DNA of 64,000 nt from a virus: positions 27,504-91,503 of IMG/VR virus record IMGVR_UViG_3300027821_000007; one strand, 5' to 3'. The translations under genes and the position numbers were made by a program. This document shows, piece by piece, positions 21,662 through 44,879 of this stretch (positions are counted from its first letter, which is position 1; each line of letters starts with the position of its first letter). The notes below the pieces were generated by a model, which worked only from the letters and a program-made list of their open reading frames with translations, ran no database searches and was not told the origin of the DNA.

Positions 21662-23440
21662 GTGGCGCTCACGCCTAGTTCCTGGAACATGCCGCACCGG
21701 CCGATGAACCTGCCGGGAATGAACCGCGACAACGCCCCATCAACCCCGGTCGAGGCGGGACTGATACAGCGGATTTCCGGGCAGATGCGAACCTGGTTGG
21801 GGATGGGGCAGGCAGGGTCTACGGAACTGCCGTTCTTTCCGCCGGGCCGGCCGCTCGATCCCGTGGCGCCCGGGGCGGGTGGTCGGCGTTTCGATTACCC
21901 CACTTCGTACAATACTATCTATACGCCGCGCTCCTTCGAGCCGATCAACTTCGAAAGCCTGCGCGCCATCGCCGACCCGGCCGTGGGCGGCTACGACCTG
22001 ATCCGCCTCGCCATCGAAACCCGCAAGGACCAGATCGGCAACCTCAAGAAGTCGATCATGCCGAAGAAGCAGGGCGATCAGGCGTCGCGGCCCAAGACCG
22101 ACGACCGCTGTCGCCAGCTCGAGGCCATTTTCGAGCGCCCCGACGGTGAGATCGGCTGGCAGCAATGGGTGTCGCAACTCGTCGAGGAACACCTGGTCAT
22201 CGATGCCGCGACCATCGTGCGCAAGAAGAACCGCGGCGGCGAGACGGTCGGCTTTGAGCTCATCGACGGCTCGATGATCAAGCCGCTGCTCAACTACGAC
22301 GGCCGCACCCCGCTCGACGGGCCAGCCTACCAACAGGTCATGAAGGGCATCGTCGCGGCCGAGTTCTCCAAGGAGGACATGATCTACGCGCCGCGCAACC
22401 GGCGGGTGAACAAGGTCTACGGCTGCAGCCCGGTTGAGCAGGTGCTGGTCACCGCGAATATCGGCCTGCGGCGTCAGGCGCAGCAACTCGCCTACTTCAC
22501 CGACGGCACCATCCCCGACGCGGTGTGGCAGGTGCCTCCGACCTGGACCACGCAACAGATCGCCGAGTTCCAAGCCTATTGGGACACCATCGTCAACGAC
22601 GCGGTAACCCGGCGGAAGATGCGCTTTGCCCCGGGCGGCGTGACCCCGGTGATGACCCGCTCGCCCGAGGCGCTGGTCGACCAGTTTGACGAGTGGCTGG
22701 CGCGTATCATCGCCTTCTGCTTCTCGCTGCCGCCGACCCCGTTCGTTCGCCTGGTCAACCGCGCGACCGGCGAGACGATGTACGAACAGGCCCTGCAGGA
22801 GGGCCTCGCCCCACTTATGACGTGGATAAAGAGTCTCCTCGACTACATCATTGCCGATTGGTTCGGGTTTCCGGACATCGAGATGGTGTGGGACGATTTC
22901 AGAAAAGTCGACCCCGCGGAGAAGGAACAGCGCGACGTCGTCCTGGTCAACGAGGGCGCGATCTCGCTCGACGACATCCGCACCGAGCGCGGCATGGAAC
23001 CGCTCGGCGTGCCGCCCTTCGTGCGCGGCATCGGCCCGATGGGCTTCCTCTCGATCGAGGGCATCAAGAAGATCATCGCGAACGGCTGGGACGTCACCGG
23101 CCTGCCGCAGCCGACGATGCCGGGCCAGGAGATGGCCGGACTGGGCGGCGCGCCCGGCGAGGGCGACCCATCGGTCGACGAACTCGTGCAGGGCCTGCCG
23201 CCGGAGATCATCGAGGCGCTGGGGATCGCGCCGCAAACTCCGGCAAACGGCGCCGAAACTCCGGCAAATGGCCAAATGACGGGCGCCATGGTGGGCGCTG
23301 AAGGTCAAATGGTGGACGCTGCCGGATCGAATGTCGTGCCTTTCCATGAACATCCCGGCGTTAAAGCAGCCTTGGCGCACGGCGAGCAGATGGCGCACAA
23401 ACATGCGGCGCAGTTGAGGTCGGCAAAGCGCGGCAAATGA
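21662..23440 (+). CDS. Portal protein
   Basis: The 592-residue protein forms the dodecameric DNA gate of the capsid vertex. Residues 100-460 have the Phage_portal pattern: VGGYDLIRLAIETRKDQIGNL, ENVI-type segment EEHLVIDAATIVRKK, YAPRNRRVNKVYGCSPVEQVL, and the late helix GEGAISLDDIRTERGMEPLG-like region. The first 90 residues are Pro-rich and the last 100 are Gly/Ala/Gln-rich, both likely flexible. The GTG start at 21662 follows the previous stop directly. It overlaps the next very large gene by ATGA. Length and gene position (head of the capsid operon) agree with the call. Confidence 0.9.
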   Translation: MALTPSSWNMPHRPMNLPGMNRDNAPSTPVEAGLIQRISGQMRTWLGMGQAGSTELPFFPPGRPLDPVAPGAGGRRFDYPTSYNTIYTPRSFEPINFESLRAIADPAVGGYDLIRLAIETRKDQIGNLKKSIMPKKQGDQASRPKTDDRCRQLEAIFERPDGEIGWQQWVSQLVEEHLVIDAATIVRKKNRGGETVGFELIDGSMIKPLLNYDGRTPLDGPAYQQVMKGIVAAEFSKEDMIYAPRNRRVNKVYGCSPVEQVLVTANIGLRRQAQQLAYFTDGTIPDAVWQVPPTWTTQQIAEFQAYWDTIVNDAVTRRKMRFAPGGVTPVMTRSPEALVDQFDEWLARIIAFCFSLPPTPFVRLVNRATGETMYEQALQEGLAPLMTWIKSLLDYIIADWFGFPDIEMVWDDFRKVDPAEKEQRDVVLVNEGAISLDDIRTERGMEPLGVPPFVRGIGPMGFLSIEGIKKIIANGWDVTGLPQPTMPGQEMAGLGGAPGEGDPSVDELVQGLPPEIIEALGIAPQTPANGAETPANGQMTGAMVGAEGQMVDAAGSNVVPFHEHPGVKAALAHGEQMAHKHAAQLRSAKRGK

Positions 23441-26400
23441 AAAAGCGGGAGCCTGACAAACCCGGTTGGGCGTCCAGGATTGCTGGGGCCGGGTTATTGG
23501 CGGGTGGTGGTATCGCGGCCGGCATGCTTATGCGAGGCAAAGGGGCGCGTATTGCCGGGGCGATGCGGCGCAGATTCCGTTCAACCGCCGCGTCTGCACC
23601 GCGGACAGCCTTCAAAACGCCACCCCCGGCAGCGGCGGCTCCGCGTCCCTCCGTGGCGCCCAAATCGGCCGCGCCTTCGCCGGCGCCGAAGCCACAGCAG
23701 TTTCACGGGCCGCCGCCCGCGCACGGTCCTGAACCCACCACCGACCTGGGGCAGCGCCGGAGAAAGGCGTTAAACAACTGGGTCAGCCACATCCACGATC
23801 ATGTCGGCAAGACCGTCAAGTTCAGGGACGACATCAACCAACTGCACCATTCAAAAGGGCAGATCATAGCCTCCCACGGCAAGGATGGCGGCGCGACCGA
23901 TGCGCATGTCGAGTGGGCGAAGAACATTGTCGAACCCATCGTGGCAGGCGAACCGATCGGATTGAAGAAACGCGACACCACCGGCTTGCTGTCGGCGGCC
24001 GAGCATCAGCAACGCGTCGCGGCCGCGCGCAGTCCCCGCCATCACGCCGAAACCGCGATCTCGGTACGCCAGGGCAGCACCGGAGCGCCGTCGAAGGCAG
24101 CGATCGGCCTGTTCCGGCAGGGTCAGCAACGCTCCGATACACGCGCCAGCCGCAGCGTCTGGGACACCCGCGGCACCGAGCAGGCGGTTGGCTCGATGAA
24201 CGCCCGCTTCAAGCTGCACCTGCCCCAGGCCTATCGCAGCACGCTGCCGGAATCGCTGCTGCCCTACCCGATGGGACGGCCTTTGCTGGCCGAAGCGTTG
24301 GCCGAGCCGCCGAAAAAGAAGGGCAAACAGAAGGTTGGGCCGCATCGTGACCTGACGATCGAGAACCCCAGCACCTTCACCGAAGCGATGCGCCATCCGC
24401 GCATGGTCGAGATCCTGCGCCGTTCGATTGGCGTGGTGCGCGATCACCAGAAAGGCGCGGTCGAATACGGTTACAAGAAAGGCCTTATCCCCAAAGGCAC
24501 GCCGCCGGGGCTGGCGGCACGGGCCTACAAGCATGCGGCGCTGATGGCGGTGCACAAGGTCGGGGTCGGCCACTACGACTTCGCCATGGACGCGACGATG
24601 CAGCGCGAACTCGAGCCGCTCCGGCTGTTCATGCAATACGCTCATCGCCGGGTATTCGACCGCCTGCACACCGAGAACCAGCCCGAGACGTTCGAGCCGT
24701 TCAAGCGCGAGTTCGGCAAGAAGTTCAGCAGCCGCAAGCACGGCAAGCTGACCGGCACCGAGCGTTACCGGATGTCGCCGAACAACGTTTTCATCAAGCG
24801 AGCGCCACTCACCCGTGTGCTGCGAATTGCCGGGCAGCATATTGGCGATCTGATCCGGCGGCCGACGGCGATCGGCAAAAAACCGTCATTTCCTGAGATC
24901 AAGCGAGATCTGTTGCGGGCCAATGCTTTGCGCAGGGAACGGCTGATCATCACCGATCCAAAGGGGCATGTAAGTCATCGCGTCACCGGAAGGCCGTATT
25001 CCACTCAGGTTAAAATGCCGATCAAAGGATTTCGTGATTTCCAAGGGTCAAACACATTTCACAACCATCCGACCAAAATCCCTCCAGGGGCATCAAGTGC
25101 TGACTATTCTTTTTCGATGGCTCTCGGTGCAACGCCTGAGAAGCCTCACACTATCATAACGCCCCATCATCGAGCGATCACACGCTACTTTTCCTCGCTT
25201 AAGCACGGAGTTGGTCTGAAAACGAGATACACTTCAGGCAAGGTTGAACAGCAGGGTGATTTCCCGCGGTCCCGAAAGGCGCCGCAACTCGGCAAGAAGA
25301 ACGAGGGTGCGATGCGCAAGGGTTGGACCAACGCCACAGGGGTCATCAACGCACCCGGTCGCGGCCCGACCGACCAGCCCGGCGACCAGCCGCCCGGCAA
25401 GATCCATCATGCCCGGCTGAAGCAGGCGATGAAGCATGGCCATGGCATACGGCTGTCGTTGAGCGGGCCGGTGCCCGAGCCACCGGGCGGTCTGCCGCCG
25501 CCGGCACATCCTGGGCTTCACGTGAAACACGCCGCACGCGAGGTCGAGCGGCATTTCGGGGTTGGCAAGATCAGCGGCGCCGCCGGGCTGCGTAAGGACT
25601 TCGACGATTTCATGCTGGCCGATCCCGGTTACTCGCCGGGGTTCAGCTACACCGACAACCCGGCCCTGCTGTTGCGCCGCTCGATGCGGCCGCGAATTCG
25701 CCGACGCCGCCAGGGATTGCGGCTGAACACCCAGAAGCACATGCGCCGCGCCTTGTCCGGCGGGATCACCCGCCACGAACGCTGGCTGTTGGGCGTCAAG
25801 CCGGCGCGGTGGGAAGCGTCCAAGAGTGGGGACTCTGCTGACGCCAGACTGCAGAAAGGCATCATCGGTTCGGCGATGAACTTCGGTGCGACCCACCTGA
25901 AGCCGTTGTTGGGCCAGATCAGCGGCGCGGCCACGCGCGCGAAGGGCGCGATCGGCAGCGGCTTCAAGCGTGCCGGATCGGCGATCGCGGGCAGCCGTGG
26001 CGGCCAAGCTATCGCCGGAAAGGCGAAGCAGTTGGCGGCCACGCCAAGAGGTCAGCGCATCGTCGGCAGCTCGCGCGTTCAAGCGTTGCACCACGAAGCC
26101 AAAGCCTTCCGTGGTGGCGGGTTTCGCGAGGGCGTCATGGCGAATGTTGGCGGGTTTACCGGGGCGGCGCTTGGTGGCCATCGTGGCGCCAAGCTCGGGC
26201 GCACCGTGGGTTTCGCTGCCGAATACGCGCCGTATGCCTATGCTGGAGCCAAAGCCGCGCAGCACTTCATGGGTGGCAAGGATAAGGAAAAGGCGGTGGA
26301 GAAGATCTCGCCGCGGATGATGTTCGGGGCCGGGGTTGCCGCGGTCGCGGCCCGACGGGCGGCAGCCAAGCTTGCGACCCATCCGCGCGTTGCTCCGGTC

Positions 26401-26826
26401 GTGAACGAACTGCGCGCGCAAGGCACCATGAAAACCCCGCTCTGGCGCCTGGGACGTCTTACCGGCGCGGCCATTGCTGGCGAGAAGGGTGCCAGGATCG
26501 GCGGCCATGTCGGGCGGACGCTTGAAATCGCTCCGATTGTCGCCGGCGGCACGCACATCCTGATCAACCGCAAGAAGCGCCAGCAGGAAACGAAGAAGCA
26601 GATCGACCGCCTGAAGGCGATGCCCGGCCAGTTAGTGATGGGCAAGAACAGTCCGGCCCGCGATATCTATACCAGCGACCTCAACGAGACCGTGCGGGCA
26701 CATCTGCGCTCGATTTCCGGCGGCGGCTATTCGCCGCACCAGCTCGCCCAGGTCAGAGCAATCCTGGCCGCAAGTAGACGTCACACCCAGTCTCGGGCAC
26801 AACCCGCGGCACAACAGAGCCAATAG
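23437..26826 (+). CDS. Large Gly/Ala-rich basic protein with JAMM-like insert (1129 aa)
   Basis: Coupled to portal by ATGA. Residues 8-35 form a glycine-rich hydrophobic segment (RIAGAGLLAGGGIAAGMLM), followed by a Pro/Ala-rich linker and a long basic helical region. Residues about 490-610 hold a separate alpha/beta domain with FHNHPTKIPPGASSADYS, close to the H-x-H-x7-S-x2-D metal motif of JAMM peptidases but with one extra spacer residue. The C-terminal 350 residues are glycine-zipper stretches (GGFTGAALGGHRGAKLG and similar). No full-length homologue is recognised. Such proteins between portal and capsid are candidates for internal virion or DNA-ejection proteins. That role is inference. 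Confidence 0.7.
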   Translation: MKKREPDKPGWASRIAGAGLLAGGGIAAGMLMRGKGARIAGAMRRRFRSTAASAPRTAFKTPPPAAAAPRPSVAPKSAAPSPAPKPQQFHGPPPAHGPEPTTDLGQRRRKALNNWVSHIHDHVGKTVKFRDDINQLHHSKGQIIASHGKDGGATDAHVEWAKNIVEPIVAGEPIGLKKRDTTGLLSAAEHQQRVAAARSPRHHAETAISVRQGSTGAPSKAAIGLFRQGQQRSDTRASRSVWDTRGTEQAVGSMNARFKLHLPQAYRSTLPESLLPYPMGRPLLAEALAEPPKKKGKQKVGPHRDLTIENPSTFTEAMRHPRMVEILRRSIGVVRDHQKGAVEYGYKKGLIPKGTPPGLAARAYKHAALMAVHKVGVGHYDFAMDATMQRELEPLRLFMQYAHRRVFDRLHTENQPETFEPFKREFGKKFSSRKHGKLTGTERYRMSPNNVFIKRAPLTRVLRIAGQHIGDLIRRPTAIGKKPSFPEIKRDLLRANALRRERLIITDPKGHVSHRVTGRPYSTQVKMPIKGFRDFQGSNTFHNHPTKIPPGASSADYSFSMALGATPEKPHTIITPHHRAITRYFSSLKHGVGLKTRYTSGKVEQQGDFPRSRKAPQLGKKNEGAMRKGWTNATGVINAPGRGPTDQPGDQPPGKIHHARLKQAMKHGHGIRLSLSGPVPEPPGGLPPPAHPGLHVKHAAREVERHFGVGKISGAAGLRKDFDDFMLADPGYSPGFSYTDNPALLLRRSMRPRIRRRRQGLRLNTQKHMRRALSGGITRHERWLLGVKPARWEASKSGDSADARLQKGIIGSAMNFGATHLKPLLGQISGAATRAKGAIGSGFKRAGSAIAGSRGGQAIAGKAKQLAATPRGQRIVGSSRVQALHHEAKAFRGGGFREGVMANVGGFTGAALGGHRGAKLGRTVGFAAEYAPYAYAGAKAAQHFMGGKDKEKAVEKISPRMMFGAGVAAVAARRAAAKLATHPRVAPVVNELRAQGTMKTPLWRLGRLTGAAIAGEKGARIGGHVGRTLEIAPIVAGGTHILINRKKRQQETKKQIDRLKAMPGQLVMGKNSPARDIYTSDLNETVRAHLRSISGGGYSPHQLAQVRAILAASRRHTQSRAQPAAQQSQ
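24900..25270 (+). other. Lower-GC domain insert in the 1129-aa gene
   Basis: Base composition drops sharply here. The line 25021-25080 has about 24-25 G or C in 60 bases, while flanking lines have roughly 38-42. The stretch encodes the JAMM-like HNHP domain and its edges fall near codons for RDLLRANALRRERL and KVEQQGDFPRS. A local composition shift with exact domain borders points to acquisition of this domain from another genome. Confidence 0.6.
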
Positions 26827-26835
26827 GAGGATTAA

Positions 26836-27360
26836 ATGCCGACCGCCATGTTGATCGCGCCTTCCCCCGGATCGTCCTTCCTTTCCCGCAATGGCCACAC
26901 CTATACCGCCGACAATCGCGGGGTGATCCGCGACGTGCCGTTCGGCACCGAAGTGCAGGATCTGCAGTCCAGCGGCTGCAACCTGGTGCAGGCCGGCCGC
27001 TATCCGATGATGGCAATCAACGCTGACCTGAACACGCTCGAGGACCAGCGCTTCGACACCTCGCTGATCGGCAGCGGGTTGTTCCTCCCCGACAAGGTCG
27101 TGGCGTCGGGCGCCAGCATGCCGCTGACCGCCGCGGCCGGCAGCATCTACACTCGGAACAACAAGGAAGGCGACAAGATCGCCTCGCTGACGTTCTCGGC
27201 GCTGGACGGCACGACCGAACCGCAGGCGGTCGTGGTCCTCCTCGACCCGACGGTGGCCGGCAAGGTTCAGCACGGCGATCTGTGGTTCACGATGGATACG
27301 GTGCAGGGCGAGCCCGCCACCTGCACGATCTTCGTCTACGGGGATCTCGTCGCGGTCTGA
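26836..27360 (+). CDS. Structural protein of the head region (174 aa)
   Basis: TAGGAGG lies just upstream, a strong ribosome-binding site and one of the few uncoupled starts in this region, so high expression is likely. The product is beta-rich: SFLSRNGHTYTADNRGVIRDV near the N-terminus, then an SLIGSGLFLPD block and EGDKIASLTFSALDG. The N-terminal SRNG-x-x-Y-x-x-D-x-x-G pattern is typical of small capsid-associated phage proteins. A capsid decoration or accessory role is plausible. Confidence 0.65.
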   Translation: MPTAMLIAPSPGSSFLSRNGHTYTADNRGVIRDVPFGTEVQDLQSSGCNLVQAGRYPMMAINADLNTLEDQRFDTSLIGSGLFLPDKVVASGASMPLTAAAGSIYTRNNKEGDKIASLTFSALDGTTEPQAVVVLLDPTVAGKVQHGDLWFTMDTVQGEPATCTIFVYGDLVAV

Positions 27361-27383: not shown

Positions 27384-28178
27384 ATGAGCGGCGTCCTACC
27401 TCCAGTCAATGTCGACGTCCCCTACGCGTCCCAGAATGGCAATGTGTTGAATTGCACAATGGGCAACTGGCAAAACGAACCGACCGCATACTCTTATCAA
27501 TGGAATGACGGGACAGCGGATGTCGGCACTGACACTGCCGACTTCCCCATCTATCCGGCATACGTGGGCAGGACCTTCACCTGCGTCGTGACCGCGACGA
27601 ATGCCGGCGGCTCGACAGTGGCGCCGCCGTCCAACGGCGTTGAAGTCGTCGGTTCGGAGCCTCCCACCCAGGAGGATATCGATCGCGTGTTCAGGGCGGT
27701 GCGAGCGCAAAGCACGTTCCTGGAAACCCGCGAAAACTGGATCGAGCAATGCGAGCACTACAGCGTCTCGCTCAATGAAGCTTTGATCTTCTGCACCGGA
27801 CCGGAACCCGAGACGCATCTTGCCGAGATCGGCGAACGGCTCGACTGGGCGATCGACCACGTCGGCGAACTGCGCGCCGAAGTGGCGGCGGTAGAACCGC
27901 CGGCGCCGGCGGAACCATCGGGAACGCCGCCCGCGTCGTTGACCCAGCAGGAGGTCGATGCCGCGGAACGGATCGCCAACGCACTGCGCATGCTGGCCGA
28001 GTTGCAGGGCAACGTGCTCCGGCAATGCGACCAGATTACCGTGACACTGCAGGTCGCCAAGCAGTGGAGTATCGAAGAGGACGCCGCCGAGCATGTACCC
28101 GCGATAACCAACGGGGTGCATGGCAGCATCGAGCAAACCGCCCGGCTACGCAGCATGCTGGGATCAACCCAAACCTGA
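27384..28178 (+). CDS. Ig-like domain protein, probable capsid decoration
   Basis: The 264-residue product has an N-terminal immunoglobulin-like domain (residues 8-90). Its marks are the strand-Cys VLNCTMGNW, AYSYQWNDG with the core Trp, and YVGRTFTCVVTATNAGGS. This is the usual phage Ig-like repeat, often displayed on capsids or tail tubes for weak carbohydrate binding. Residues 95-260 are helical with a Pro/Ala linker (EPPAPAEPSGTPPA) between two helical halves that share an RxQ/LRxE pattern. AAGGAG precedes the start. Surface display on the head is inferred from position. Confidence 0.75.
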   Translation: MSGVLPPVNVDVPYASQNGNVLNCTMGNWQNEPTAYSYQWNDGTADVGTDTADFPIYPAYVGRTFTCVVTATNAGGSTVAPPSNGVEVVGSEPPTQEDIDRVFRAVRAQSTFLETRENWIEQCEHYSVSLNEALIFCTGPEPETHLAEIGERLDWAIDHVGELRAEVAAVEPPAPAEPSGTPPASLTQQEVDAAERIANALRMLAELQGNVLRQCDQITVTLQVAKQWSIEEDAAEHVPAITNGVHGSIEQTARLRSMLGSTQT

Positions 28179-28240: not shown

Positions 28241-28657
28241 ATGAGTGACGCGAAACCCATTCCGCCCGCCCGCGTGGCCGCGCAGGCCGGCGACAAGAGC
28301 TACGTGCCGGACTGGGATCCGGGGCAGAACGCGCTAACGGGCCAGCCGCCCCAGGTGGTGCCGGTGATGAACCGTCCGCTTGATGTCGGCGCGCCAGTGA
28401 TGGTCGAGGGACTGACCATCCGGCCAGCCAAGCTGATGGACGCGCCCGAAGCGCGCAACACCATGTCGCGGATAATCAACGACATGCTGGTGTGGATCGA
28501 GGATTTCCCGCACGACCTGGTGGGCGAGGGCGCGCATGTGCTGAAGGTGTTTCAGGACCTCAAGGCGCGCCGCTTTGCTCGCGTGATGGCGGCGCAGCAC
28601 GACCAGGACATTGAGCCGGACGCGATCGACAAGGCGCGGTTCAAGCCCGGTCCATGA
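28241..28657 (+). CDS. Unrecognised head-region protein (138 aa)
   Basis: ATG 28241 has GGAGAGAG upstream and is preferred to upstream in-frame codons. The N-terminus is extended and Pro-rich; residues 55-125 are helical (APEARNTMSRIINDMLVWIEDFPHDLV). It overlaps the next gene by ATGA. No family is recognised; context suggests an assembly or minor virion protein. Confidence 0.6.
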   Translation: MSDAKPIPPARVAAQAGDKSYVPDWDPGQNALTGQPPQVVPVMNRPLDVGAPVMVEGLTIRPAKLMDAPEARNTMSRIINDMLVWIEDFPHDLVGEGAHVLKVFQDLKARRFARVMAAQHDQDIEPDAIDKARFKPGP

Positions 28658-29172
28658 TCCTTCCCACGCCGTTTCCGAAGCCGCCGGACCCTCCCGACCC
28701 GCCGGTGCCGCCGGCGCCGCCCGAGATCCCGCAAATTCCCGGCGGCTTGCCGTCGCTGCTCTACTATCCGCCACCGATCAGCCCGAAGCCCGACGCGGTG
28801 CGCGGCCATCTGTTCGAGAAGCCGCGCTGGACTATCGCGGAGATCGGCCGGCCGGAGCGGCGGGCGCCCGATCAACGCGTTGGCGACGAACCGGTGCAAT
28901 GGGGTGCCGTTCCCCAGGCGAAACCGCCGCCGACATTTTCCTGGCAGTGTCCCGAATGCCTGATCGGGCACTGGGAAAGCGCGGTGATCAAGCGCAGCAC
29001 GTACAAGAGCACGATGCCGGTGGCGACGTTCTACGACAAGGCGAACACCCTGCATGTCCACGACCCCAACCTGCTGACCACGTGGTTCACCTGCACCCGC
29101 GCGCACATCTGGTCCATTCAGGAAACCCTTACCTGCCCGAACCTGAGCTGCATCTGGCCGACCGTTGTATAG
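28654..29172 (+). CDS. Pro-rich protein with a zinc-ribbon-like domain
   Basis: The 172-residue product begins with about 40 residues dominated by Pro (PKPPDPPDPPVPPAPPEIP), an extended polyproline arm. The C-terminal half has FSWQCPECLIGHW, WFTCTRAHIWS and LTCPNLSCIWP, a Cys/Trp-rich region that may bind zinc. A polyproline arm followed by a compact domain suggests a bridging role. No family is recognised. Confidence 0.55.
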   Translation: MILPTPFPKPPDPPDPPVPPAPPEIPQIPGGLPSLLYYPPPISPKPDAVRGHLFEKPRWTIAEIGRPERRAPDQRVGDEPVQWGAVPQAKPPPTFSWQCPECLIGHWESAVIKRSTYKSTMPVATFYDKANTLHVHDPNLLTTWFTCTRAHIWSIQETLTCPNLSCIWPTVV

Positions 29173-29184
29173 GAGGCCTTCACC

Positions 29185-29352: not shown

Positions 29353-29401
29353 TAAATAAACCCTTGCCGGTGTGCTGAATTCATGCGGGCATGGGCCCGT
29401 C

Positions 29402-29830: not shown

Positions 29831-29854
29831 AGCGGCCAGAGGGCCGCTTTTTTT
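29831..29854 (+). terminator. Intrinsic terminator overlapping the MuF-gene start
   Basis: A perfect 7-bp stem (AGCGGCC 29831-29837 with GGCCGCT 29842-29848), a four-base loop AGAG and a run of seven T (29848-29854) make a compact strong terminator. The T-run touches the first possible start (TTG 29853) of the next gene. Transcription of that gene must come from readthrough or antitermination, because no convincing promoter is seen between the terminator and the gene. Confidence 0.85.
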
Positions 29855-36600: not shown

Positions 36601-38332
36601 CATCAAAGCCGGCGCGAAAGCTGTCGGCAGCCTACCCGGCAAGGCGGTGGTCGGAACCATCCGCAAGCTCCCCAAGACATCCGTCGGGGCCGCTCTCGTT
36701 GGCGGCTACATGCTGGGCAAGCCGAAACGTCCGTCCTACGCCGACCCCGAAGCCATGAAGGCTGAACTGATCGGCCGGCTGCGCAAGAACATCCTGCTGC
36801 AGGACGACAACACGGTCAGCCAATGGAAGCAGGCGCGCGCCGACCAGTGGGGGCCGAAGCCGTTCTGGTCGATGCCCAAAGACAACAACGATCCCAAGCA
36901 GGTGACGATGCCGGGCATGCCCGAGCAGCAATACGGCCCCTCGGGCGGCCTGCTCAGCAACATCTTCAAGGGCGAGAACCCGTATGGCGAACTGGCCAAG
37001 AAGGCCAGCGCGGCGGAGCAGGAGAAAATCCACGAGACCATGCACGAGTTCAAGCATGGCAAACTGAAGTCGTTCCGCTCCAACCTGCCCAAGCGGAAGA
37101 TGCCCAAGGTCACCGATCGCAAGCAGGCTATCGCTATCGCGCTCAATCAGGCGCGACGCATGGGCAAGAGCGATGACGGCCTGTTGGTGGCGATGCTGGC
37201 TGACCGGCTGGTCAAGAACGACGTCACCATCTTCAACGACAAGACCCTTGGTCGTGGCGATCGGGCCAAATTCCAGGATCGGCAGAAGAGCAAGAGCTAC
37301 ATCCGGGCGGAGCGGGGCGGCACCGGCATCGCCGGGCAGCTCGCCGAAGCGCAGTTCAAGGGACCGCTGGTCGGGGGGGCCAGCATGGTCGGCTCCCATC
37401 TTGGCACGGGCGCGGCCGTGCGGATGGCCGAACGCCTCTGGCCCAGAGGACGCGTGCCGTATGTCGGCATGACCGCCACGCAGGCGGCAAGCCGGGTCGG
37501 TAGCAAGCTTGGCGGTATGGTTGGCAAGGACGTCGTTGGCGTGGCGGGGGCCGGCGCGAAATCGCTGATGCATTCCGCCCAGAGCGCTTACGCCTCGCGC
37601 ACGACCCGCAAGGCCATCGGCCAACTCTCGTCAGCCGAGCACGCCCAGCGGGTCGCCGCGGCCAAGGCGCGATGGAAGAAGGAAATGGGCCACGTCGACA
37701 TGGAGGGCCATCACAAGGCGGTCGAGGACTGGGCCGGCAAGGCGATCCTCGGCCGCGATGCCAAGGTCGCTCGGGCGCGGGAGCATGCCGAGCATTTCTG
37801 GCACAACGTCGCGGACGCTCATGCCGCGCACGACAAGATGCGGCCGCACGTCGACAAGGACGCGGCGATCGTCATGAAGATCCCGGGCACCTCGACCGAG
37901 CACTCCGGTCACCTGGTGCACAACCCGGATGGCATCGGCACCGATCATTTCACCCGGTTCGGCAAGCCGACCAAGAAGATCTACCTGATGCACCCCGACG
38001 AGGTGGACGACTGGGTCCGGCTGCACGGCAAGAAGGACACCAGTCTGAACATGCCGTTGTCGGAAGCCCGGCGCCATCCGACCATGGGAGCAAAGCTTGC
38101 CGAACTCGACGCGCATGAGCGCGCCGCTATGGGCAAGAGCGCCCCGTCCGGAGAAATCGTACATTTTGACGAGCTATATGAAGCGCTCGATTTATTGTCC
38201 GATTTGCAGAAGTGGCGCGGCTACACCAACGCCCTGGCCCACACGGTTTCCGGGGGCACGATCGGCTCCTCGAACGAAGAGCTCGCCGCCGAGACGCGCG
38301 CCCGTAAGCGCAAAGCGATACGGGCGACATGA
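33620..38332 (+). CDS. XkdF-type prohead protease fused to a giant glycine-zipper protein (1570 aa)
   Basis: A GGAGG site precedes the ATG. Residues 1-160 match XkdF-type prohead serine proteases: FFLPLTKADEEKRLVWGRA, then IRAMHNPKHLAGK (His 68) and GGYTGFSIGGGYVKKW (Ser 113), closing with PRIQEISFVDSPCIPGARI. Such proteases are normally about 200-350 residues and mature the prohead. Here about 1400 residues follow: repeated Gly/Ala hydrophobic zippers alternating with basic linkers. Three linkers near 35.78, 36.10 and 36.54 kb repeat KQERRGDLDK or a close variant. Near residue 1150 a HEFKHGKLKS plus KQAIAIALNQARRMGK segment resembles DUF6496. The protease call is firm; the tail is probably an internal virion protein, perhaps cut by its own protease. 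Confidence 0.85.
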   Translation: MTEFTFFLPLTKADEEKRLVWGRAAVEEPDKSKEIMDYLSAKPEFQKWSDGYSKATMGKSFGNIRAMHNPKHLAGKVAEIVYNDDAKAVDICVKVLDPVDWAKVEEGGYTGFSIGGGYVKKWADQASGCTRYTPRIQEISFVDSPCIPGARIMEMQKQDGSLEEVLLKGVPRSFAELLPPPSFAQLRKGIAGELAGSVAGNFIGSKIGAVAGSALGPAGTAVGHVVGGEIGSMAGSALAGAKAPSMAEAAQVAGGKAPSSNLRIPKAPKPKQGFRMSSTFKGAPDGGMVKRWDVSKHPREHTGAFASKTGEKVGRFTLGGAGAVGGTLLGLKHGEKLGTQAGLHASSLYHRMKGSPGFAAGVKAGDIGGWAGRRYGGLIGAGALGLGGALVGGAGGALLDTAMRRRRAKKAGRLEIYHRLNAKTSARPNSFKQVKASTMRAVSAGKRVRGIADAVMGKGHAMDKPVEKGLGGAALGAGRALGAAGLAMGRHAGIKVLPHYIGMAGAAAGVKAGFQGGRRLGAKIADKMIARNQAKGIGPITATAGAGKPGLIRHGEKIVRGVGEQLTSRQKKILLGTVAGTAVAGGLAGGVAAHQASHHTVKHIDKKLTQRFGRPRAPGERMQFDAKKSAPTGKMNKFIVPLALGVGGAMLGGHLGAKGGARLAAHGLHRRMLSGTASHYDLTGAPIFTGAGTGGVGGMISGGGLGIHIGRKIENRDGKAKKQERRGDLDKAFGAKLAQGAMAALRKPGRVGESIGAKVGQRVGSRMFTAAKARGASDHEAAQRMWRAMGTGRTVGRNVGHGLAAGGAAATGLGIAAMSRRRNAEKQERRGDLDKGIGGSIMRGALNAIESPTGRKVIGSLGQAGRSVKGAATSLGQKASGAATSFRQKATGMASSAMASPAGQSVAAAGNKASGMARRGAMKAINSPIGAQTIKTAGKFGQTIAAHPRAATAVLATGAAGYALGQRRGRSEMSDKQERRGNLEKGMIGAIGQGIKAGAKAVGSLPGKAVVGTIRKLPKTSVGAALVGGYMLGKPKRPSYADPEAMKAELIGRLRKNILLQDDNTVSQWKQARADQWGPKPFWSMPKDNNDPKQVTMPGMPEQQYGPSGGLLSNIFKGENPYGELAKKASAAEQEKIHETMHEFKHGKLKSFRSNLPKRKMPKVTDRKQAIAIALNQARRMGKSDDGLLVAMLADRLVKNDVTIFNDKTLGRGDRAKFQDRQKSKSYIRAERGGTGIAGQLAEAQFKGPLVGGASMVGSHLGTGAAVRMAERLWPRGRVPYVGMTATQAASRVGSKLGGMVGKDVVGVAGAGAKSLMHSAQSAYASRTTRKAIGQLSSAEHAQRVAAAKARWKKEMGHVDMEGHHKAVEDWAGKAILGRDAKVARAREHAEHFWHNVADAHAAHDKMRPHVDKDAAIVMKIPGTSTEHSGHLVHNPDGIGTDHFTRFGKPTKKIYLMHPDEVDDWVRLHGKKDTSLNMPLSEARRHPTMGAKLAELDAHERAAMGKSAPSGEIVHFDELYEALDLLSDLQKWRGYTNALAHTVSGGTIGSSNEELAAETRARKRKAIRAT

Positions 38333-41300
38333 GCAAGCCGATGTTCAATCCGGACATCATCGGCGAGTTAAGAAAGCGTGTCGCCGCGCATAACGAGATC
38401 GTCAAGGCGACGCATCCCGACATGGTGGTCAAGCTCGGCGGGGTGAAGAAGCTCTACAAGCGCTGGTACTCGGGCCCCGACCCGCATGCCCACGCGCTGG
38501 CCATGCTCGATGCCCGGTTGCTGACGCAGCAGACCATGGCGCTGGGCGAACTGGAGAAAGCGCGCCAGCCCTTCGAGGGCGCCCGTCATCCCCGCGGTCG
38601 CGGCGGCCAGTTCCGCTCGAGCGGCCGGGGCGGCGGTGGAACTGGTGGAGGTGGCGGCGGCGGCACCGTGGCGCCGCGTCCAGCCGGCGGCGGTCCCGGC
38701 GATGGCGACAACGCCCTGCTGCAGGCGGCGCAAACCCAGGTCATCCCGGAAACCCGCTACACGGTGTTCGGCCCCAAGGTCGCGGCCGCGGCGGGCATCG
38801 GCCTCGGCGCCATTGCCGGGGCGACGGCCCGTCCCGGCCTGCCCTGGCAGGGCGGAGGGTCGGTGATCGATCGCGGCGTCACCAGCATTGCCGGAGCGCT
38901 CGGCCGTCAGGGCGGCAAACTCGTCGGGATCATGGGCCGTGCCGCCGGGATCGACGCGCCGATCGGCGTGGCGCGCCGGGTGGTTCCCATCCTCAATCGT
39001 CATGGCGGCGCGTTTCCAATGCCGGGACCGACCGCCGGGGTGGCGGCGGGCGATCGGCTCGTGAACGCGGCGGGGCGGGGCGGGCGCGCGGTCGGCCGCG
39101 GCATCAGCCACGCTTTTTCGCTGGCGAACTACCCGGCGGCGCGGGTCGGACAGATGGTCGCGCGCACCAAGGGCCCGATCGCTGGCCGTGCGGCCGCTGC
39201 CATGGTCGGGGCGGCGCTTCCCGGCATCGCCTATGCCAGGACGCTGCATCACGTGCAGGGCACGATCGGGCCCTACCAGGACACGCTCTTTCCGCGACGG
39301 GTGAAGAAGATCGACGAGCAGGTCAGGGACATGGTCGGGCCGATCTGGGACGATCCGGCGGTGCTGGCCAAGCAGGCCGAACTGCTGACGTTGCCGGACC
39401 TCGCCAAGCAGGATCTGTCGGAGTTTCTCACCAAAGTATCGTTCGGCCCGGCTGTGAGCGCCGGGGGCGCCGCCGCGATGCGCTCGCTGCGCTTCCTGCG
39501 CGGCCCGGTCGCGCGCGCCACCCGGATGTTCACCAAGCCGCCGCCACCCCCGCCGCCGATGCAGGGGCCGCCCAGCGCGATCCAGCACGCGGCCGAGACC
39601 GCGTTCGGCGAGCAGGCGGGGCATTTCCGGGTGCCGCGCAATGTCGGCGTGCGTGCCGGCGTGATCGCCGGGCATGTCGCCGGACTTGGCCTTCTCGGCG
39701 CCGGGGCCGGGGCATTGACGGGCGCTGGGTTGGCGGCGTTCGCGATCCAGCATCCGCGCGATCCGCACACCGGCAAGTTCCGCTCGAAGGGGCAGGCGGC
39801 GCGGACGGGCGCGCTCCACGGCGCCGTGCTCGGCAGTGGCCTGGGTTTGGCGCTTGGCATTGTCGCGGCTCGCGGTGGGCAGAAGGAATTGCTGCGCGCG
39901 GCGCTTGGCCGATTGCGTGACCAGGTGGCGACCAAGGAAGGCGCGATGGCGCGCGCCGCGATGCATGACCGCGCCGAGAAGAGCGCCACCGACACCTTCT
40001 CCGCGACCTATATGGCCGACAATCCGCACCTGAAGATCGAGGTGCCGGACGGCTCCAGGGTGAAGCCGTCGCAGATCAGGAAGCATCAAGGCGACATCGC
40101 TGTCGAGGATTGGGTTGCGCGCGAGGGCGCCGCGATGCATGCCGGCCCGGTGACCTGGTATCAGAAACAGGTCGAGGACCACTTCGAAGCGTTCGTCGAT
40201 CGCCAGTTGCTCGCGCTGAAAAGCAAGAGACAGCGCAACCTGCCGCGCCGGAACGATGCCGATCGCCTGATCGACAGCGTCGACGATCAGATCGTGACGA
40301 CGCATAACGAACTGGGCGAGGCCATACATCACGACCCGCTCACCGTCGACCAACGCAGGATCTGGAACGGCGCTTTAGAAATGCGCCAGCGGGCGCGCGA
40401 CGAGATCGAGGCGGTCTATGCCGGCCGCAGAGCGCAGGTCAAAGAGCATGGGACCGCCGCCATCGGCCTCAAGCACGAGCAAGGCCAGCTTATCGCCAAA
40501 CTCGGTTCGGTGCGGGCGGATTGGAACCACGTCCTGCTGACCAAGCCGTCACCGTCGGTCGAGCAGTTGCGGGCGGTCGCAACCAGCATCGGCCACAAGC
40601 TGGAAGCCAAGACCAAGGAAGGCATCGTCGCGGAACTGCAGGAGCGGATCCCGCGATGGGAGCATGAGGTCGACTCCCGCATCACCCAGATCAAGGACGA
40701 AATTCCGCAACTCGAGGATGCCGCCGAGGTGGCGCGGGCGTCCGAGAAGGAGGACCTGACCCAGGAAGAACAGCGGCTCATCCGCAACCCGTTTATCAAG
40801 ACGCGCAAGGCAAGAAAGGGCAAGCCGGCGATAACGGGCTTCTTTGAGCCGCGTCTGCCTGGGGTCGGCACGGCCGCGGGCTACGACGAGATCAAGGCGG
40901 GGATCGCCGACGAAGCGAACAAGGCTTTCAACCAGGGGTTGGAACGGCACGTCATCGCGGCCAAGCAGCATCTCGAGGAACTGGCCCTGGCCGAGGAGGC
41001 CGCGATCCAGGCGCGGATCCCGGCGAACAACGTCTTCGCGGAGTGGATCAAGCGCAAAACGCCGGAATTCTCCGACAAGATGGCGCAGGGCTGGGCCGAC
41101 TACAACGAACTCACCGCGGCCTATCGGGGTCAACTCAAAGGCCAGATGAAGCAGTTATACGACGGCGTCCACGCCCACCGCGACCCGAAGAAGGCTTTCG
41201 ATACGATTAAGAAGATGGCCAAGGGGGCGGCCGATTTCTGGAACAGCGATGCCGGCAAGTGGCTGCGGCAGAACTGGAAATACGTGGTCGGCGTGGTCGG

Positions 41301-43278
41301 GCCGATGGCCGCGATAGGCATCATCGATTTGCAGGCCGGGCCGGGCAAGAAGAAGGTCGAGCTCAACCCGAAGAAGTGGCGGTGGCGTAATGTCCAGGCG
41401 CATTTCGAGCTGCCGGGCGGCCTGAAACGGCCGGACGAGGCGGTCTTCGGCGTCAAGTTCAAGGACAAGGATGGCAAGGAAAAGTTCCTGCATGCCATCC
41501 ACGTCAAGAACAAGGAAGGCGAGTACCAGAACATCGGATACGGCTCCGAGGTCAACAGCGTCAGTAACTTCTTGCGTGGCGGGGACCAGCAGGGTGGTGG
41601 GGGCCATGGCGGCAACCGGCCGAACAAGGCTCAGGTGAACAACGGCGCGGAGGTCGACAAGGCGATCGCGGACGGGATTGCGGCGGGTCACATCAACGAA
41701 GTTGGCCCGACCAGCTTCACCTATGCCCAACGCAAGATGGGCGAGCCGCAGGGCAAGAAGGAAGAGGAGTCGGTCCGCAAGTGGTTCGTCGAGAAGCACA
41801 TCAACGGATTGCAGCATATCGGCAACCAGCACTTCTCAAGCGACAAGCACGACCGGTTCTACGCCTCGCTGCGTGATCTGTTCGAGGGCGGCCGGACCGA
41901 ACTCTTCGACCGGGACACCCGCAAGCAACTGCTGCTGGGCAGCGATTTCGACAAGAGAAACCGCGGCATCTTCGGCAATCAGAAGGTCTGGCACGATATC
42001 CCGCACGATCCCGCGGCGGTCGGCGGAGCCCTGCTGCGGCAGCTCAAGATGGCCGGCGCCATGCCGTTGAACCCCGAAGAATACACCCAGATGCATCGGG
42101 CGCTGTCGTTCGTCGCCAACCTCGCTGGCCTCGACCAGAACCAGAAGAGCAGCCTGAACAAGGCGTTGCAGGACGGCTATCTGAACATCACCAAGCGAAC
42201 CTCGGTGCCCACGGTGAGCGCGAGCGGATTGGAGAACCAGAAGTCGATCGAGAGCTTCAAGACCGAGATGCTGAACAACGACAAGATCACCGAGGCGCGC
42301 CAGCGCAAGGGCCTCGACGATCAGGGTGCGTTCACCGATTTGCTCGATACCCTCTACCAGAAGGGCCGCGAGGGCGCCGTCGCCCGGAACAACAGCGCCG
42401 ACGACAACGAGCAGCACGTCGCCGGCATGCAGCATGTGCGTGAGCAGGTGTTCTTCCGGCTCAACACGCTCGGCAAGGCGGCGCCGCTGGGCGATCTCTA
42501 CAAGCTCTTCGGCATGGCCGACCGGTTCGACGAGCAGCGCCATCCGCGCGGCCATATCGGTCAGTTCCGTGCTGCGGGCCACAACGCCCCGCCACAGGTG
42601 GGCGCGATCAGCGGGGCGCGGCAGCACATGCCCACCCCGGACTCGCCCGGGCCGCAATCGGTTGGTGACTTCGCCATGCGGCGGCCGCCGGAAAGCCCCG
42701 GGATGGCGCCAACCCAGGCGCCTGCCGGCCATGGCGGGAGGTTTGGCGGCGCCGATTTCGGCGCATCGCACATGCTCGGGCAGGTCGGCACCTACGGGCT
42801 GAGCCAGGCGGGGTGGGACGTGGTCGGCAACCTCGCTTCGCACATGATGCCGGCGGGCGGCATGGTTTCGAACGCCACCAAGTTCGGGCTGCAGACGATG
42901 GGCGGCTTCGCCGGCTCGATCGGTGGCCTGAAGGGCGGCCAGGCGCTGGGCCACGCGATGGGCGACCGCAGCCCGCACCACGAGGCGCCGGCAGCCGAGG
43001 GCATCGTGCGCAACCTCGCCGGCGGCGGAGCGCAGATCGCCTTCAACGAATATGCCGGGCCTGCGGTCGGACGGGTGATCGCCGGGGCAGCCGGGCGGGC
43101 GCTGGGTGGGACGGCCGGGTCGTTCCTGGGACCCGCCGGGACGATCCTGGGATCGGCGCTGGTCGGGGCGCTCACCGATGAAGGCGTGGGAATTCTCTAC
43201 CGGCATCTGAGTCGCTACGGCGAACACGTGCCGGAGCACGCGATCAAGCATTTCCGCCACAAGGGCGCCCCCGCATGA
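38329..43278 (+). CDS. Giant Gly/Ala-rich virion-type protein (1649 aa)
   Basis: Coupled to the protease-fusion gene by ATGA. Residues 80-130 carry a RHPRGRGGQFRSSGRGGG segment and a Gly-rich linker. Residues 145-560 are hydrophobic Gly/Ala zippers separated by basic linkers, including HPRDPHTGKFRSKG. Residues 570-1000 are charged and helical, likely coiled coil. Residues about 1030-1150 look like a folded alpha/beta domain. A second RHPRGHIGQFR near residue 1405 opens a final Gly-zipper block (GGFAGSIGGLKGGQALG). No enzyme motif is recognised. The mix of membrane-like zippers and long helices resembles phage proteins injected to line a DNA channel, but this is inference. Confidence 0.65.
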   Translation: MSKPMFNPDIIGELRKRVAAHNEIVKATHPDMVVKLGGVKKLYKRWYSGPDPHAHALAMLDARLLTQQTMALGELEKARQPFEGARHPRGRGGQFRSSGRGGGGTGGGGGGGTVAPRPAGGGPGDGDNALLQAAQTQVIPETRYTVFGPKVAAAAGIGLGAIAGATARPGLPWQGGGSVIDRGVTSIAGALGRQGGKLVGIMGRAAGIDAPIGVARRVVPILNRHGGAFPMPGPTAGVAAGDRLVNAAGRGGRAVGRGISHAFSLANYPAARVGQMVARTKGPIAGRAAAAMVGAALPGIAYARTLHHVQGTIGPYQDTLFPRRVKKIDEQVRDMVGPIWDDPAVLAKQAELLTLPDLAKQDLSEFLTKVSFGPAVSAGGAAAMRSLRFLRGPVARATRMFTKPPPPPPPMQGPPSAIQHAAETAFGEQAGHFRVPRNVGVRAGVIAGHVAGLGLLGAGAGALTGAGLAAFAIQHPRDPHTGKFRSKGQAARTGALHGAVLGSGLGLALGIVAARGGQKELLRAALGRLRDQVATKEGAMARAAMHDRAEKSATDTFSATYMADNPHLKIEVPDGSRVKPSQIRKHQGDIAVEDWVAREGAAMHAGPVTWYQKQVEDHFEAFVDRQLLALKSKRQRNLPRRNDADRLIDSVDDQIVTTHNELGEAIHHDPLTVDQRRIWNGALEMRQRARDEIEAVYAGRRAQVKEHGTAAIGLKHEQGQLIAKLGSVRADWNHVLLTKPSPSVEQLRAVATSIGHKLEAKTKEGIVAELQERIPRWEHEVDSRITQIKDEIPQLEDAAEVARASEKEDLTQEEQRLIRNPFIKTRKARKGKPAITGFFEPRLPGVGTAAGYDEIKAGIADEANKAFNQGLERHVIAAKQHLEELALAEEAAIQARIPANNVFAEWIKRKTPEFSDKMAQGWADYNELTAAYRGQLKGQMKQLYDGVHAHRDPKKAFDTIKKMAKGAADFWNSDAGKWLRQNWKYVVGVVGPMAAIGIIDLQAGPGKKKVELNPKKWRWRNVQAHFELPGGLKRPDEAVFGVKFKDKDGKEKFLHAIHVKNKEGEYQNIGYGSEVNSVSNFLRGGDQQGGGGHGGNRPNKAQVNNGAEVDKAIADGIAAGHINEVGPTSFTYAQRKMGEPQGKKEEESVRKWFVEKHINGLQHIGNQHFSSDKHDRFYASLRDLFEGGRTELFDRDTRKQLLLGSDFDKRNRGIFGNQKVWHDIPHDPAAVGGALLRQLKMAGAMPLNPEEYTQMHRALSFVANLAGLDQNQKSSLNKALQDGYLNITKRTSVPTVSASGLENQKSIESFKTEMLNNDKITEARQRKGLDDQGAFTDLLDTLYQKGREGAVARNNSADDNEQHVAGMQHVREQVFFRLNTLGKAAPLGDLYKLFGMADRFDEQRHPRGHIGQFRAAGHNAPPQVGAISGARQHMPTPDSPGPQSVGDFAMRRPPESPGMAPTQAPAGHGGRFGGADFGASHMLGQVGTYGLSQAGWDVVGNLASHMMPAGGMVSNATKFGLQTMGGFAGSIGGLKGGQALGHAMGDRSPHHEAPAAEGIVRNLAGGGAQIAFNEYAGPAVGRVIAGAAGRALGGTAGSFLGPAGTILGSALVGALTDEGVGILYRHLSRYGEHVPEHAIKHFRHKGAPA

Positions 43279-44879
43279 GCGGGGCAGGTGGCGGAGGGAC
43301 TTCGACGGGAGGCGGCGGAGGTGGTTTCACCCAGGGCACCAACGCTTTCGGAGGGCTGACGAACACCGATTTGCGGCCACGCCAGCGCCGCAAACGGCCA
43401 GTCCCGCTGCTCGACACTTCCTGGGTAACACCGCCGCACAGAAAGGAGCGCACCATGCGTAAAGATGTTTCAGGGCTCGTCGACACGCTTTACGACAGTG
43501 TCGCCGGAATAGTCGCGTCGGCATCGCCGGACACCAACGACCTGCTGACCAAGAGCTTCACCGAGTTCGGCAACGCGCTTGGGGAACAACTCGAGGCCGA
43601 GTATGGGCCGGACCCGGAGCCGTTGGCCAAGGGACTGAACCACGTCTCGGCGTTCGCCAACGCGCTGATGAAGATGGAAGTGAGCGTCCAGGCGATTAAG
43701 GCCGGCACGCCGATCTATGCCGACGACAACGAGCCCGTCGTGGCCTCGACGGCCGCCGCTCTCGACCGCTTCATGGGCCATGGCATCGTGCTGCTCAAGC
43801 AACTCGCCAACGACACCGCCCGGATCCCCGACGACGAGGAGGACATGGAGCGGGCGGAGCAGGCCGGCGAGTTGATCAAGATCGAAAGCCAGTTCGGCGA
43901 TGAGATGCTGCTGAAGACTGATCTCCCCGAAGATCTGGCGGCGTATCTCACCGACCCGCTGGACCTGATGACCGAGATCGCCGGGCTGGGCTCGAGCATG
44001 ATCGAGGACGCGCGCGGCATCGCCGACGCCTTGCTGGGGAGCGATCCGGATTCGATCCCGGAGGAAGTCGCGGAGCAATATCCGCTGGTGTTCGAGCCGT
44101 TGGAGAAGGAGTTCCCGCCGAAGAAGAAGGCCAACGGCGGCGGCTCGCCCTTCGGTGCCCAGCGCGGCCAGAGCAGTGACCAGAATGACAGCGGCGACGA
44201 CGAGGGCGACGAACCCGATGACGGCGGCGACGAACAGGGTGCGCAGGGTCAGGGCGCCATGGCGGCGCAAGGCGGGCCGGGCGGTGCCGGCGGCCCGGCT
44301 GACATCTCCGACGACACGCCGCAGAACCCGATCGACACCATCACCCGGTTGGCCAGCATCATCGTGGTGATCTCGGGATCGCTGCAGCAGGCGATGGGTG
44401 GCGGGCAGCAACCGCAGCAGCCGGACATGGCCGGCGGCCAGGGCGGCGATCCGCGCAATGTGGGCCTGCAGCGCGGCGAGCCGATCCTCGACCAGCCGTT
44501 GCAGAAGATCCTGCAGGGCGAGGCCGAGATCCAGATCCCGGGCATGGGCCAGATGACGATGGCCGAGGCGTTGGAGGAACTGGGCGAGTTGCGCAAGGCG
44601 GTGCCGCAACTGAGCAAGGCGCTCAACGAGAAGGGTGACGCGCTCAGCCTGTTGAAGACGCGGTACGACCAGATCGCCAGCCAGTCGGTGCGTTCGCCGG
44701 GGATGCAGAAGGCGGTGCCGGTGAGCAAGGCCGAGGACAGCGTGCCGGGAACGCACACGCAAGAGAACGACATGGAGAAGTTGGAGCAGTTGCAGAACGC
44801 GGATCCGGAGGGCGGCAGCGCCGCGAAGTTCCTGATCGGCCGGGTGCACCAGGGCGGCGGGGTGCCGTTGGTGCCGTAA
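43275..44879 (+). CDS. Probable scaffolding or capsid-assembly protein (534 aa, with internal start)
   Basis: The frame begins at an ATGA overlap with the previous gene. Its first 60 residues are Gly-rich then basic. An in-frame ATG at 43455 has a strong AAAGGAG and opens the compact, acidic body (MRKDVSGLVDTLYDSVAG). The body is helical and very acidic at about residues 305-325, Gln/Gly-rich in the middle, with a late helix LEELGELRKAVPQLSKALNEK. It is the last gene before the capsid transcription unit, where scaffolds are encoded in related phages, and its acidic, helical, low-complexity make-up fits. A 534- and a 474-residue product are both possible. The scaffold role is inferred. Confidence 0.65.
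   Translation: MSGAGGGGTSTGGGGGGFTQGTNAFGGLTNTDLRPRQRRKRPVPLLDTSWVTPPHRKERTMRKDVSGLVDTLYDSVAGIVASASPDTNDLLTKSFTEFGNALGEQLEAEYGPDPEPLAKGLNHVSAFANALMKMEVSVQAIKAGTPIYADDNEPVVASTAAALDRFMGHGIVLLKQLANDTARIPDDEEDMERAEQAGELIKIESQFGDEMLLKTDLPEDLAAYLTDPLDLMTEIAGLGSSMIEDARGIADALLGSDPDSIPEEVAEQYPLVFEPLEKEFPPKKKANGGGSPFGAQRGQSSDQNDSGDDEGDEPDDGGDEQGAQGQGAMAAQGGPGGAGGPADISDDTPQNPIDTITRLASIIVVISGSLQQAMGGGQQPQQPDMAGGQGGDPRNVGLQRGEPILDQPLQKILQGEAEIQIPGMGQMTMAEALEELGELRKAVPQLSKALNEKGDALSLLKTRYDQIASQSVRSPGMQKAVPVSKAEDSVPGTHTQENDMEKLEQLQNADPEGGSAAKFLIGRVHQGGGVPLVP
43443..43457 (+). promoter_or_regulatory. Strong internal ribosome-binding site and ATG
   Basis: AAAGGAG at 43442-43448 is followed by ATG 43455 at ideal spacing, in frame with the gene from 43275. 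This is one of the best ribosome-binding sites in the head region and lies inside a coding frame, so it probably yields an N-terminally shortened second product. Confidence 0.6.

What the first reader, a model, noticed from the sequence alone, without database searches (positions are those of the whole stretch)
23437..44879. About 21 kb of giant glycine-zipper proteins wedged between portal and capsid
Typical phages of this gene order spend 3-5 kb here. This one encodes proteins of 1129, 746, 501, 1570, 1649 and 534 residues, four of them with repeated Gly/Ala membrane-like zippers and basic linkers. Together they could form an internal core or an injected trans-envelope conduit in a phage that also has a long siphovirus-type tail. 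Systems of this size are known from podoviruses and jumbo phages, not from this architecture.
Basis: partly seen in the sequence, partly recalled or inferred. Interest (0 to 1): 0.8.

Follow-up and report, generated by a model that had tools for sequence, protein, structure and literature searches.

The report
Protease-cut glycine-zipper head proteins in siphophage
A little-known group of long-tailed phages of alphaproteobacteria carries 11-29 kb of extra giant head-assembly proteins that look like polyproteins, cut at a Leu-x-Lys signal by the phage's own capsid protease into basic, possibly membrane-active pieces that are probably packed with the DNA and delivered into the host.

Summary
The ORFs are real and at the stated coordinates. 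The 21 kb is an expanded head-assembly module: the 746-aa protein ends in a MuF domain, the 1570-aa protein begins with an S78_2 prohead protease, and the 534-aa protein is scaffold-like. Compact relatives spend a median of 2.4 kb here. Giant and compact forms are split by one branch of the capsid-protein tree (15 giant, 75 compact). The 1649-aa family is intact in 11 phages, including a Rhodovarius crocodyli prophage, and absent from 50,697 sequenced phages. GxxxG is the most enriched of 2800 residue pairs in the 1570- and 1649-aa proteins; the 1129-aa protein shows no zipper excess. New finding: L-x-K is the top pair in the 501-aa protein and nearly every scaffold, [LIM]xK sits just before the capsid-protein body in 113 of 116 phages, and LxK recurs at conserved borders in the giants. 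I infer it is the prohead-protease cut site, so the giants are polyproteins processed inside the prohead. Swappable cargo (InPase, DUF6496, JAMM-like) points to injected 'polyvalent' effectors. A zipper-assisted membrane-crossing role is plausible but untested. Novelty: new variant of a known kind.

The parts
21662..23440 (+). portal protein (592 aa), left border of the module
   Evidence: Pfam Phage_portal 2.7e-13; homologues in all long relatives
23437..26826 (+). 1129-aa protein, basic; conserved core about residues 180-450 and 700-790; JAMM-like motif HNHP...SxxD near residue 540-555; LxK sites at 178 and 720 shared by four phages
   Evidence: family of 442-1384 aa directly after portal in relatives; motif; sites; InPase cargo in the G004 homologue
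26836..27360 (+). 174-aa protein conserved in two relatives
   Evidence: 48-49% identity in G002 and G003
27384..28178 (+). 264-aa protein; N-terminal 100 residues match a phage virion structural family
   Evidence: phrog_12736 7e-6
29853..32093 (+). 746-aa protein: basic zipper extension (1-442) plus MuF head-morphogenesis domain; conserved candidate cut site LAK442
   Evidence: Pfam Phage_Mu_F 4.3e-11, phrog_3517 1e-65, LAK site in 6 of 6 homologues
32090..33595 (+). 501-aa acidic protein dense in LxK (9 against 2.0 expected)
33620..34189 (+). prohead protease domain (residues 1-190 of the 1570-aa protein), S78_2 type, invariant H68 and S113
   Evidence: Pfam Peptidase_S78_2 24.7 bits against cut-off 24; invariant residues; 50% identity to Brevundimonas phages
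34184..36787 (+). glycine-zipper arrays in the tail of the 1570-aa protein, separated by KQERRGDLDK/KQERRGNLEK repeats that hold LxK
   Evidence: GxxxG rank 1 of 2800 pairs; zipper and site map
37001..37168 (+). DUF6496 domain bounded on both sides by conserved [LM]xK
   Evidence: PF20106 8.5e-9; sites 1127 and 1183
37598..38218 (+). conserved C-terminal domain of the protease tail, unknown fold
   Evidence: 40-53% identity in four relatives; AlphaFold pLDDT 70; no PDB match
38329..43278 (+). 1649-aa protein: N-terminal, central hairpin (about 444-510) and C-terminal zippers around a long middle region; conserved LxK at 77, 348, 369, 1383, 1392
43275..44879 (+). 534-aa acidic scaffold-like protein directly before the capsid gene; 11 LxK against 2.1 expected
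45208..46719 (+). major capsid protein; candidate maturation site SPLTK30|FF
   Evidence: phrog_13692 1.2e-132; L28 and K30 invariant in ten giant-module phages; [LIM]xK at this place in 113 of 116 loci

Best explanation
The region is an expanded head-assembly module whose proteins are loaded into the prohead and cut there by the phage's own S78_2 prohead protease after L-x-K (sometimes M/I-x-K). The scaffold is broken down and the first 30 residues of the capsid protein are removed in the same way. The basic, glycine-zipper extensions on MuF and on the protease, and the 1129- and 1649-aa proteins, with their cargo domains, stay in the capsid as separate pieces among the DNA and leave with it through the long tail. 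In the host envelope the zipper pieces help cargo and DNA across the inner membrane, and cargo domains act as early effectors. Shown: gene order, protease and MuF identity, zipper and LxK statistics, conservation, cargo exchange, single-branch distribution. Inferred: that LxK is cut, that fragments stay in the virion, that they are injected, and that zippers act on membranes.
For: Protease and MuF domains are within the giants. LxK is rank 1 of 2800 residue pairs in the scaffold and the 501-aa protein, rank 1 in scaffolds of 9 of 10 relatives (pooled 112 against 22.5), and not enriched in tape measure or tail tip protein. [LIM]xK precedes the capsid-protein body in 113 of 116 loci against 8.7% of body segments. 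In the 1649 family, lysines in LxK are conserved in 62% of sequences against 27% for other lysines (p<5e-5). MuF LAK442 is in 6 of 6, and DUF6496 is bounded by conserved sites. GxxxG tops the 1570- and 1649-aa proteins and zipper positions persist in 11 homologues. InPase, DUF6496, zipper segments and JAMM-like motifs occur in different module proteins in different phages. One branch on the capsid tree separates giant from compact forms.
Against: No virion proteomics. By count LxK is not enriched in the 1570- (14 against 9.0), 1649- (10 against 7.0) or 1129-aa (4 against 5.3) proteins, and in the 1129 family LxK lysines are not significantly better conserved. Only a few segments reach transmembrane-like hydrophobicity. 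The S78_2 match is just above Pfam's cut-off. No fold was obtained for the JAMM-like region and no match for the C-terminal domain.
Confidence: 0.5

Rival explanations
1. Assembly-only: the giants are an enlarged scaffold or core that shapes the head and is fully degraded by the protease, and nothing is injected.
For: They are encoded among protease, scaffold and capsid genes; the acidic 501- and 534-aa proteins are dense in LxK, as expected of material that is chopped up.
Against: The 1129-, 1570- and 1649-aa proteins have few, positionally conserved sites rather than many, carry conserved zippers and cargo domains such as InPase, and are strongly basic. Compact relatives with the same capsid protein assemble without them.
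Confidence: 0.2
2. Cargo delivery only: polyvalent-type effectors are packaged and injected to fight host defences, and the zippers are linkers or DNA-organising segments rather than membrane elements.
For: Exchangeable InPase, DUF6496 and JAMM-like domains; basic charge; weak hydrophobicity; precedent in PMC5512222 and P1 Dar proteins (PMC12810830).
Against: GxxxG spacing exceeds local composition and keeps its positions across 22-42% identical homologues, which a mere linker need not do.
Confidence: 0.25
3. LxK is not a cleavage site but a by-product of helical packing or of an interaction motif in scaffold proteins.
For: Some scaffolds also show ExL or LxxxL excess.
Against: In the window scaffold LxR (2/1.9) and LxE (5/3.5) are not enriched, so the signal is specific to lysine. 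The same tripeptide sits just before the capsid-protein body and between domains of MuF and the protease tail. Three-residue motifs ending at P1 are normal for prohead proteases, e.g. A-x-E in SPN3US (PMC10052503).
Confidence: 0.15

Closest known systems
Polyvalent proteins of phages (Iyer et al. 2017, PMC5512222)
   Same: Large multidomain proteins encoded with portal/head genes; InPase and MuF fusions in relatives; predicted packaging and injection
   Different: Own proteins of the window lack the named polyvalent domains at Pfam thresholds; glycine-zipper arrays; processing inferred to be by the prohead protease at LxK rather than by a built-in metallopeptidase; extensions grafted onto the prohead protease itself
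[quoted passage not shown] PMC12810830)
   Same: Several internal head proteins, one trimmed by the prohead protease, co-ejected with DNA in a long-tailed phage of similar genome size
   Different: P1 is a myovirus; no sequence relation was found; no zipper arrays described there
SPN3US/phiKZ-type jumbo-phage ejection proteins with prohead-protease processing (PMC10052503)
   Same: Large mass of internal proteins, propeptides cut at a fixed three-residue motif
   Different: Motif A-x-E rather than L-x-K; T=27 myovirus of 240 kb; no homology found here
Podovirus ejectosome (T7, P22, N4)
   Same: Would work alike if the zipper pieces form an envelope channel
   Different: Short-tailed phages; no homologue found by Pfam or PHROGs; here a long tail and tape measure are present
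T6SS effector Tde1 glycine zipper (PMC10240207)
   Same: GxxxG repeats that let cargo cross the inner membrane; similar zippers noted in phage tape measures
   Different: A secretion-system effector, not a head protein; homology not tested
Brevundimonas phages Polewnik and Strzyga (ON529863, ON529867)
   Same: Homologous portal, protease and capsid protein; compact relatives also carry LxK-rich protease-scaffold proteins
   Different: 1.9 kb between portal and capsid gene in Polewnik; no 1649-family gene found

Membership tests
Phage polyvalent proteins | Two or more effector-type domains in one virion-associated polypeptide | tested here: inconclusive
   Relatives: InPase in the 1129 homologue of G004 and InPase plus MuF in G008. 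Window itself: protease plus DUF6496, and MuF plus extension, but no recognised effector domain
Phage polyvalent proteins | Encoded with portal-terminase head genes | tested here: met
   Between portal and capsid gene, with TerL upstream
Phage polyvalent proteins | Packaged in the head and injected | not testable with these tools
   Needs virion proteomics
Prohead protease-processed head proteins | An S78-type prohead protease in the module | tested here: met
   PF14550 24.7 bits against cut-off 24; 19 of 46 homologues S78_2 and 7 S78; invariant H68 and S113
Prohead protease-processed head proteins | Shared cleavage motif in capsid protein, scaffold and internal proteins | tested here: met
   LxK by statistics and conservation; actual cutting not shown; count not enriched in the giants
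P1 Dar internal proteins | Sequence relation to DarA, DarB, DdrA, DdrB or Hdf | tested here: not met
   No Pfam or PHROG hit to such families in the module proteins
Podovirus ejectosome (T7, P22, N4) | Homology to known ejection proteins | tested here: not met
   No Pfam, PHROG or PDB match
Podovirus ejectosome (T7, P22, N4) | Short tail that needs a channel | tested here: not met
   1875-aa tape measure and siphovirus/GTA-like tail genes
JAMM/JAB metallopeptidases (part of the 1129-aa protein) | HxHP...SxxD motif and MPN fold | tested here: inconclusive
   Motif in three giant-module phages; Prok-JAB 0.019 in one, below cut-off; model failed, pLDDT 36

The most novel reading that the evidence does not exclude
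A siphovirus lineage evolved a polyprotein ejection system: its prohead protease carries zipper peptides as its own C-terminal tail and cuts itself and its neighbours at LxK into an array of glycine-zipper peptides and exchangeable effectors that are fired through the long tail and make their own inner-membrane passage.
Probability: 0.3. Interest if true: 0.85.

Novelty: new variant of a known kind. Interest (0 to 1): 0.66.

Why it matters
How long-tailed phages move DNA and proteins across the inner membrane is unsettled, and which virion proteins they inject is mostly unknown. This lineage offers a large, compactly encoded and conserved set of candidates, a readable candidate cleavage code (LxK) that predicts exact mature N-termini, natural compact relatives as controls, and a prophage in a sequenced bacterial strain (Rhodovarius crocodyli CCP-6) in which to test it. 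The LxK code extends to the compact relatives, so it could serve as a general rule for annotating head maturation in these phages.

Tried and rejected
Nucleotide search of the 21 kb in 50,697 phages: no match. tblastn of the 1649-aa protein in phages and plasmids, and of its Rhodovarius homologue in phages: none. IMG/VR pattern scans with the 1649-aa protein alone or as an alignment recovered only already known contigs; the capsid protein was the productive bait. PDB profile search with the 1649 alignment gave only weak, mostly coiled-coil matches; with the protease alignment nothing. Fold search of the C-terminal domain: nothing significant. JAMM-like region: no Pfam, PDB or phage hit and a failed model. 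Searches for more prophages in relatives of Rhodovarius failed technically. Rejected: assembly chimera (identical second record); decaying genes (intact ORFs, pN/pS 0.3-0.5 in alignable parts, a measure biased low because only windows with at least 50% identity were used). The G004 and G010 spans assume circular records and are not proven; G003 has a 127-bp terminal repeat.

Full report
OBSERVATION. The six large ORFs exist at the stated coordinates between portal and capsid genes. The window is the last 64 kb of a 91.5-kb IMG/VR virus record. The same 25 kb recurs at 100% identity in a second record. The tail module is siphovirus/GTA-like: 1875-aa tape measure, tail assembly protein, and a tip protein with an Rcc01698-like C-terminus. 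Zippers are significantly above local composition in the 1570- and 1649-aa proteins, moderately in the 746-aa protein, and not in the 1129-aa protein.

WHAT THE PROTEINS ARE. The 746-aa protein ends in a MuF minor head domain. The first ~185 residues of the 1570-aa protein are an S78_2 prohead protease (Pfam cut-off passed for the domain; 19 of 46 homologues hit S78_2 and 7 hit S78; invariant His68 and Ser113). The 534-aa protein is acidic and lies directly before the capsid gene, like a scaffold. So the 21 kb is the normal portal-MuF-protease-scaffold-capsid block with large additions.

RELATIVES. Capsid-protein scans of IMG/VR and of bacterial genomes gave 118 loci. Compact relatives, including Brevundimonas phage Polewnik (1.9 kb) and loci in genomes of Methylobacterium, Rhodoblastus and Beijerinckia, have a median of 2.4 kb between portal and capsid gene (n=57). 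Giant-module phages have about 19.5 kb (G002), 21 kb (G003, with a 127-bp terminal repeat), 15.8 kb (G008), 14 kb (G009), 12.3 kb (Rhodovarius crocodyli CCP-6) and, if their records are circular, 29 kb (G004) and 10.7 kb (G010). On a capsid-protein tree the giant and compact forms are split by one branch (support 92; 0 of 500 label shuffles as low). The 1649 family (1506-1773 aa where complete) sits directly before the scaffold-like gene, with the protease gene upstream wherever the contig reaches it. Zipper positions are kept across 11 members at 22-42% identity. The Rhodovarius copy lies in a 552-kb contig; its left flank encodes what I read as an acetylglutamate kinase (my reading of the sequence), which fits an integrated prophage.

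CARGO EXCHANGE. The 1129-family protein of G004 and the MuF protein of G008 contain an InPase domain (PF18823, 1.7e-42 and 8e-39). DUF6496 is in the protease tail of the window phage and of G004 but in the 1129 homologue of G009. A zipper segment of the window's protease tail occurs in the 1129 homologue of G002. A JAMM-like motif occurs in three phages. InPase domains and fusions to MuF or portal are marks of packaged polyvalent proteins (PMC5512222).

THE LxK SIGNAL. Without a motif given in advance I ranked all 2800 residue pairs at distances 1-7. LxK came first in the window's scaffold (11 against 2.1), in the 501-aa protein (9 against 2.0), in scaffolds of 9 of 10 relatives (second in the tenth), and in the pooled compact protease-scaffold proteins (146 against 56.9). 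It is not enriched in the tape measure or the tail tip protein. In the window scaffold LxR and LxE are not enriched, so the signal is lysine-specific. I had noticed LxK by eye before running this screen, but the screen and the relatives are independent of that. The capsid protein has [LIM]xK just before its conserved body in 78 of 80 IMG/VR and phage loci and 35 of 36 genome loci, against 8.7% of body segments; some of these loci are near-copies of each other. In the 1649 family, lysines in LxK are conserved well above other lysines; sites 77, 348, 369, 1383 and 1392 stand out. MuF LAK442 separates zipper extension from MuF domain in all six homologues; the protease tail has conserved sites around DUF6496 and the C-terminal domain. 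By count alone LxK is not in excess in the giants, and conservation is not significant in the 1129 family; this limits the claim for them.

MECHANISM. The economical reading is that the prohead protease cuts after LxK, breaks down the scaffold, trims the capsid N-terminus, and divides the giants into basic zipper pieces and cargo that stay with the DNA. Prohead proteases with three-residue motifs and packaged substrates are known (SPN3US A-x-E, PMC10052503; P1 DarA trimming, PMC12810830). Zipper-dependent passage of cargo through the inner membrane was shown for T6SS effector Tde1, whose authors also note zippers in phage tape measures (PMC10240207). Virion presence, cutting, injection and membrane action are all inferred here.

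NOVELTY. The pieces (MuF, S78 protease, InPase fusions, injected head proteins) are known kinds. The combination is a new variant: zipper arrays grafted onto the prohead protease and MuF, a conserved 1500-1770-aa family absent from sequenced phages, LxK as an inferred maturation code, and an 11-29 kb module in a siphovirus-type phage. I found no paper describing LxK as a prohead cleavage motif in the held library, which lacks most subscription journals.

Noticed in passing
window 10042-19425: A 3127-aa ORF (TTG start, GC3 0.74) with no family hit, rich in A/G/T/V with degenerate repeats; looks like a beta-rich adhesin or fibre-type protein encoded between TerL and portal.
   Followed up: partly
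window 38587-38620, 39751-39790, 42541-42575, 34508-34545: Recurrent motif HPR[DEG]...GxF (e.g. FDEQRHPRGHIGQF), usually preceding zipper segments in the giants; present in several relatives, function unknown.
   Followed up: partly
L065:1969-2712: Free-standing GIY-YIG/NUMOD3 homing endonuclease gene between MuF region and protease in G009.
   Followed up: no
L064:7078-9945: A compact-type phage whose 955-aa protease-scaffold protein also has GxxxG as its top residue pair (22 against 6.2), next to a 1240-aa portal-containing ORF: zippers may have been gained more than once.
   Followed up: no
window 28611-29378: The 255-aa ORF here is probably not a gene (GC3 0.51); the genes are more likely 28654-29172 and 29372-29785.
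   Followed up: yes
window 57610-58266: A 218-aa tail-module protein matches a glycoside hydrolase PHROG (phrog_2913, 1.9e-61), as in GTA-like tails.
   Followed up: no
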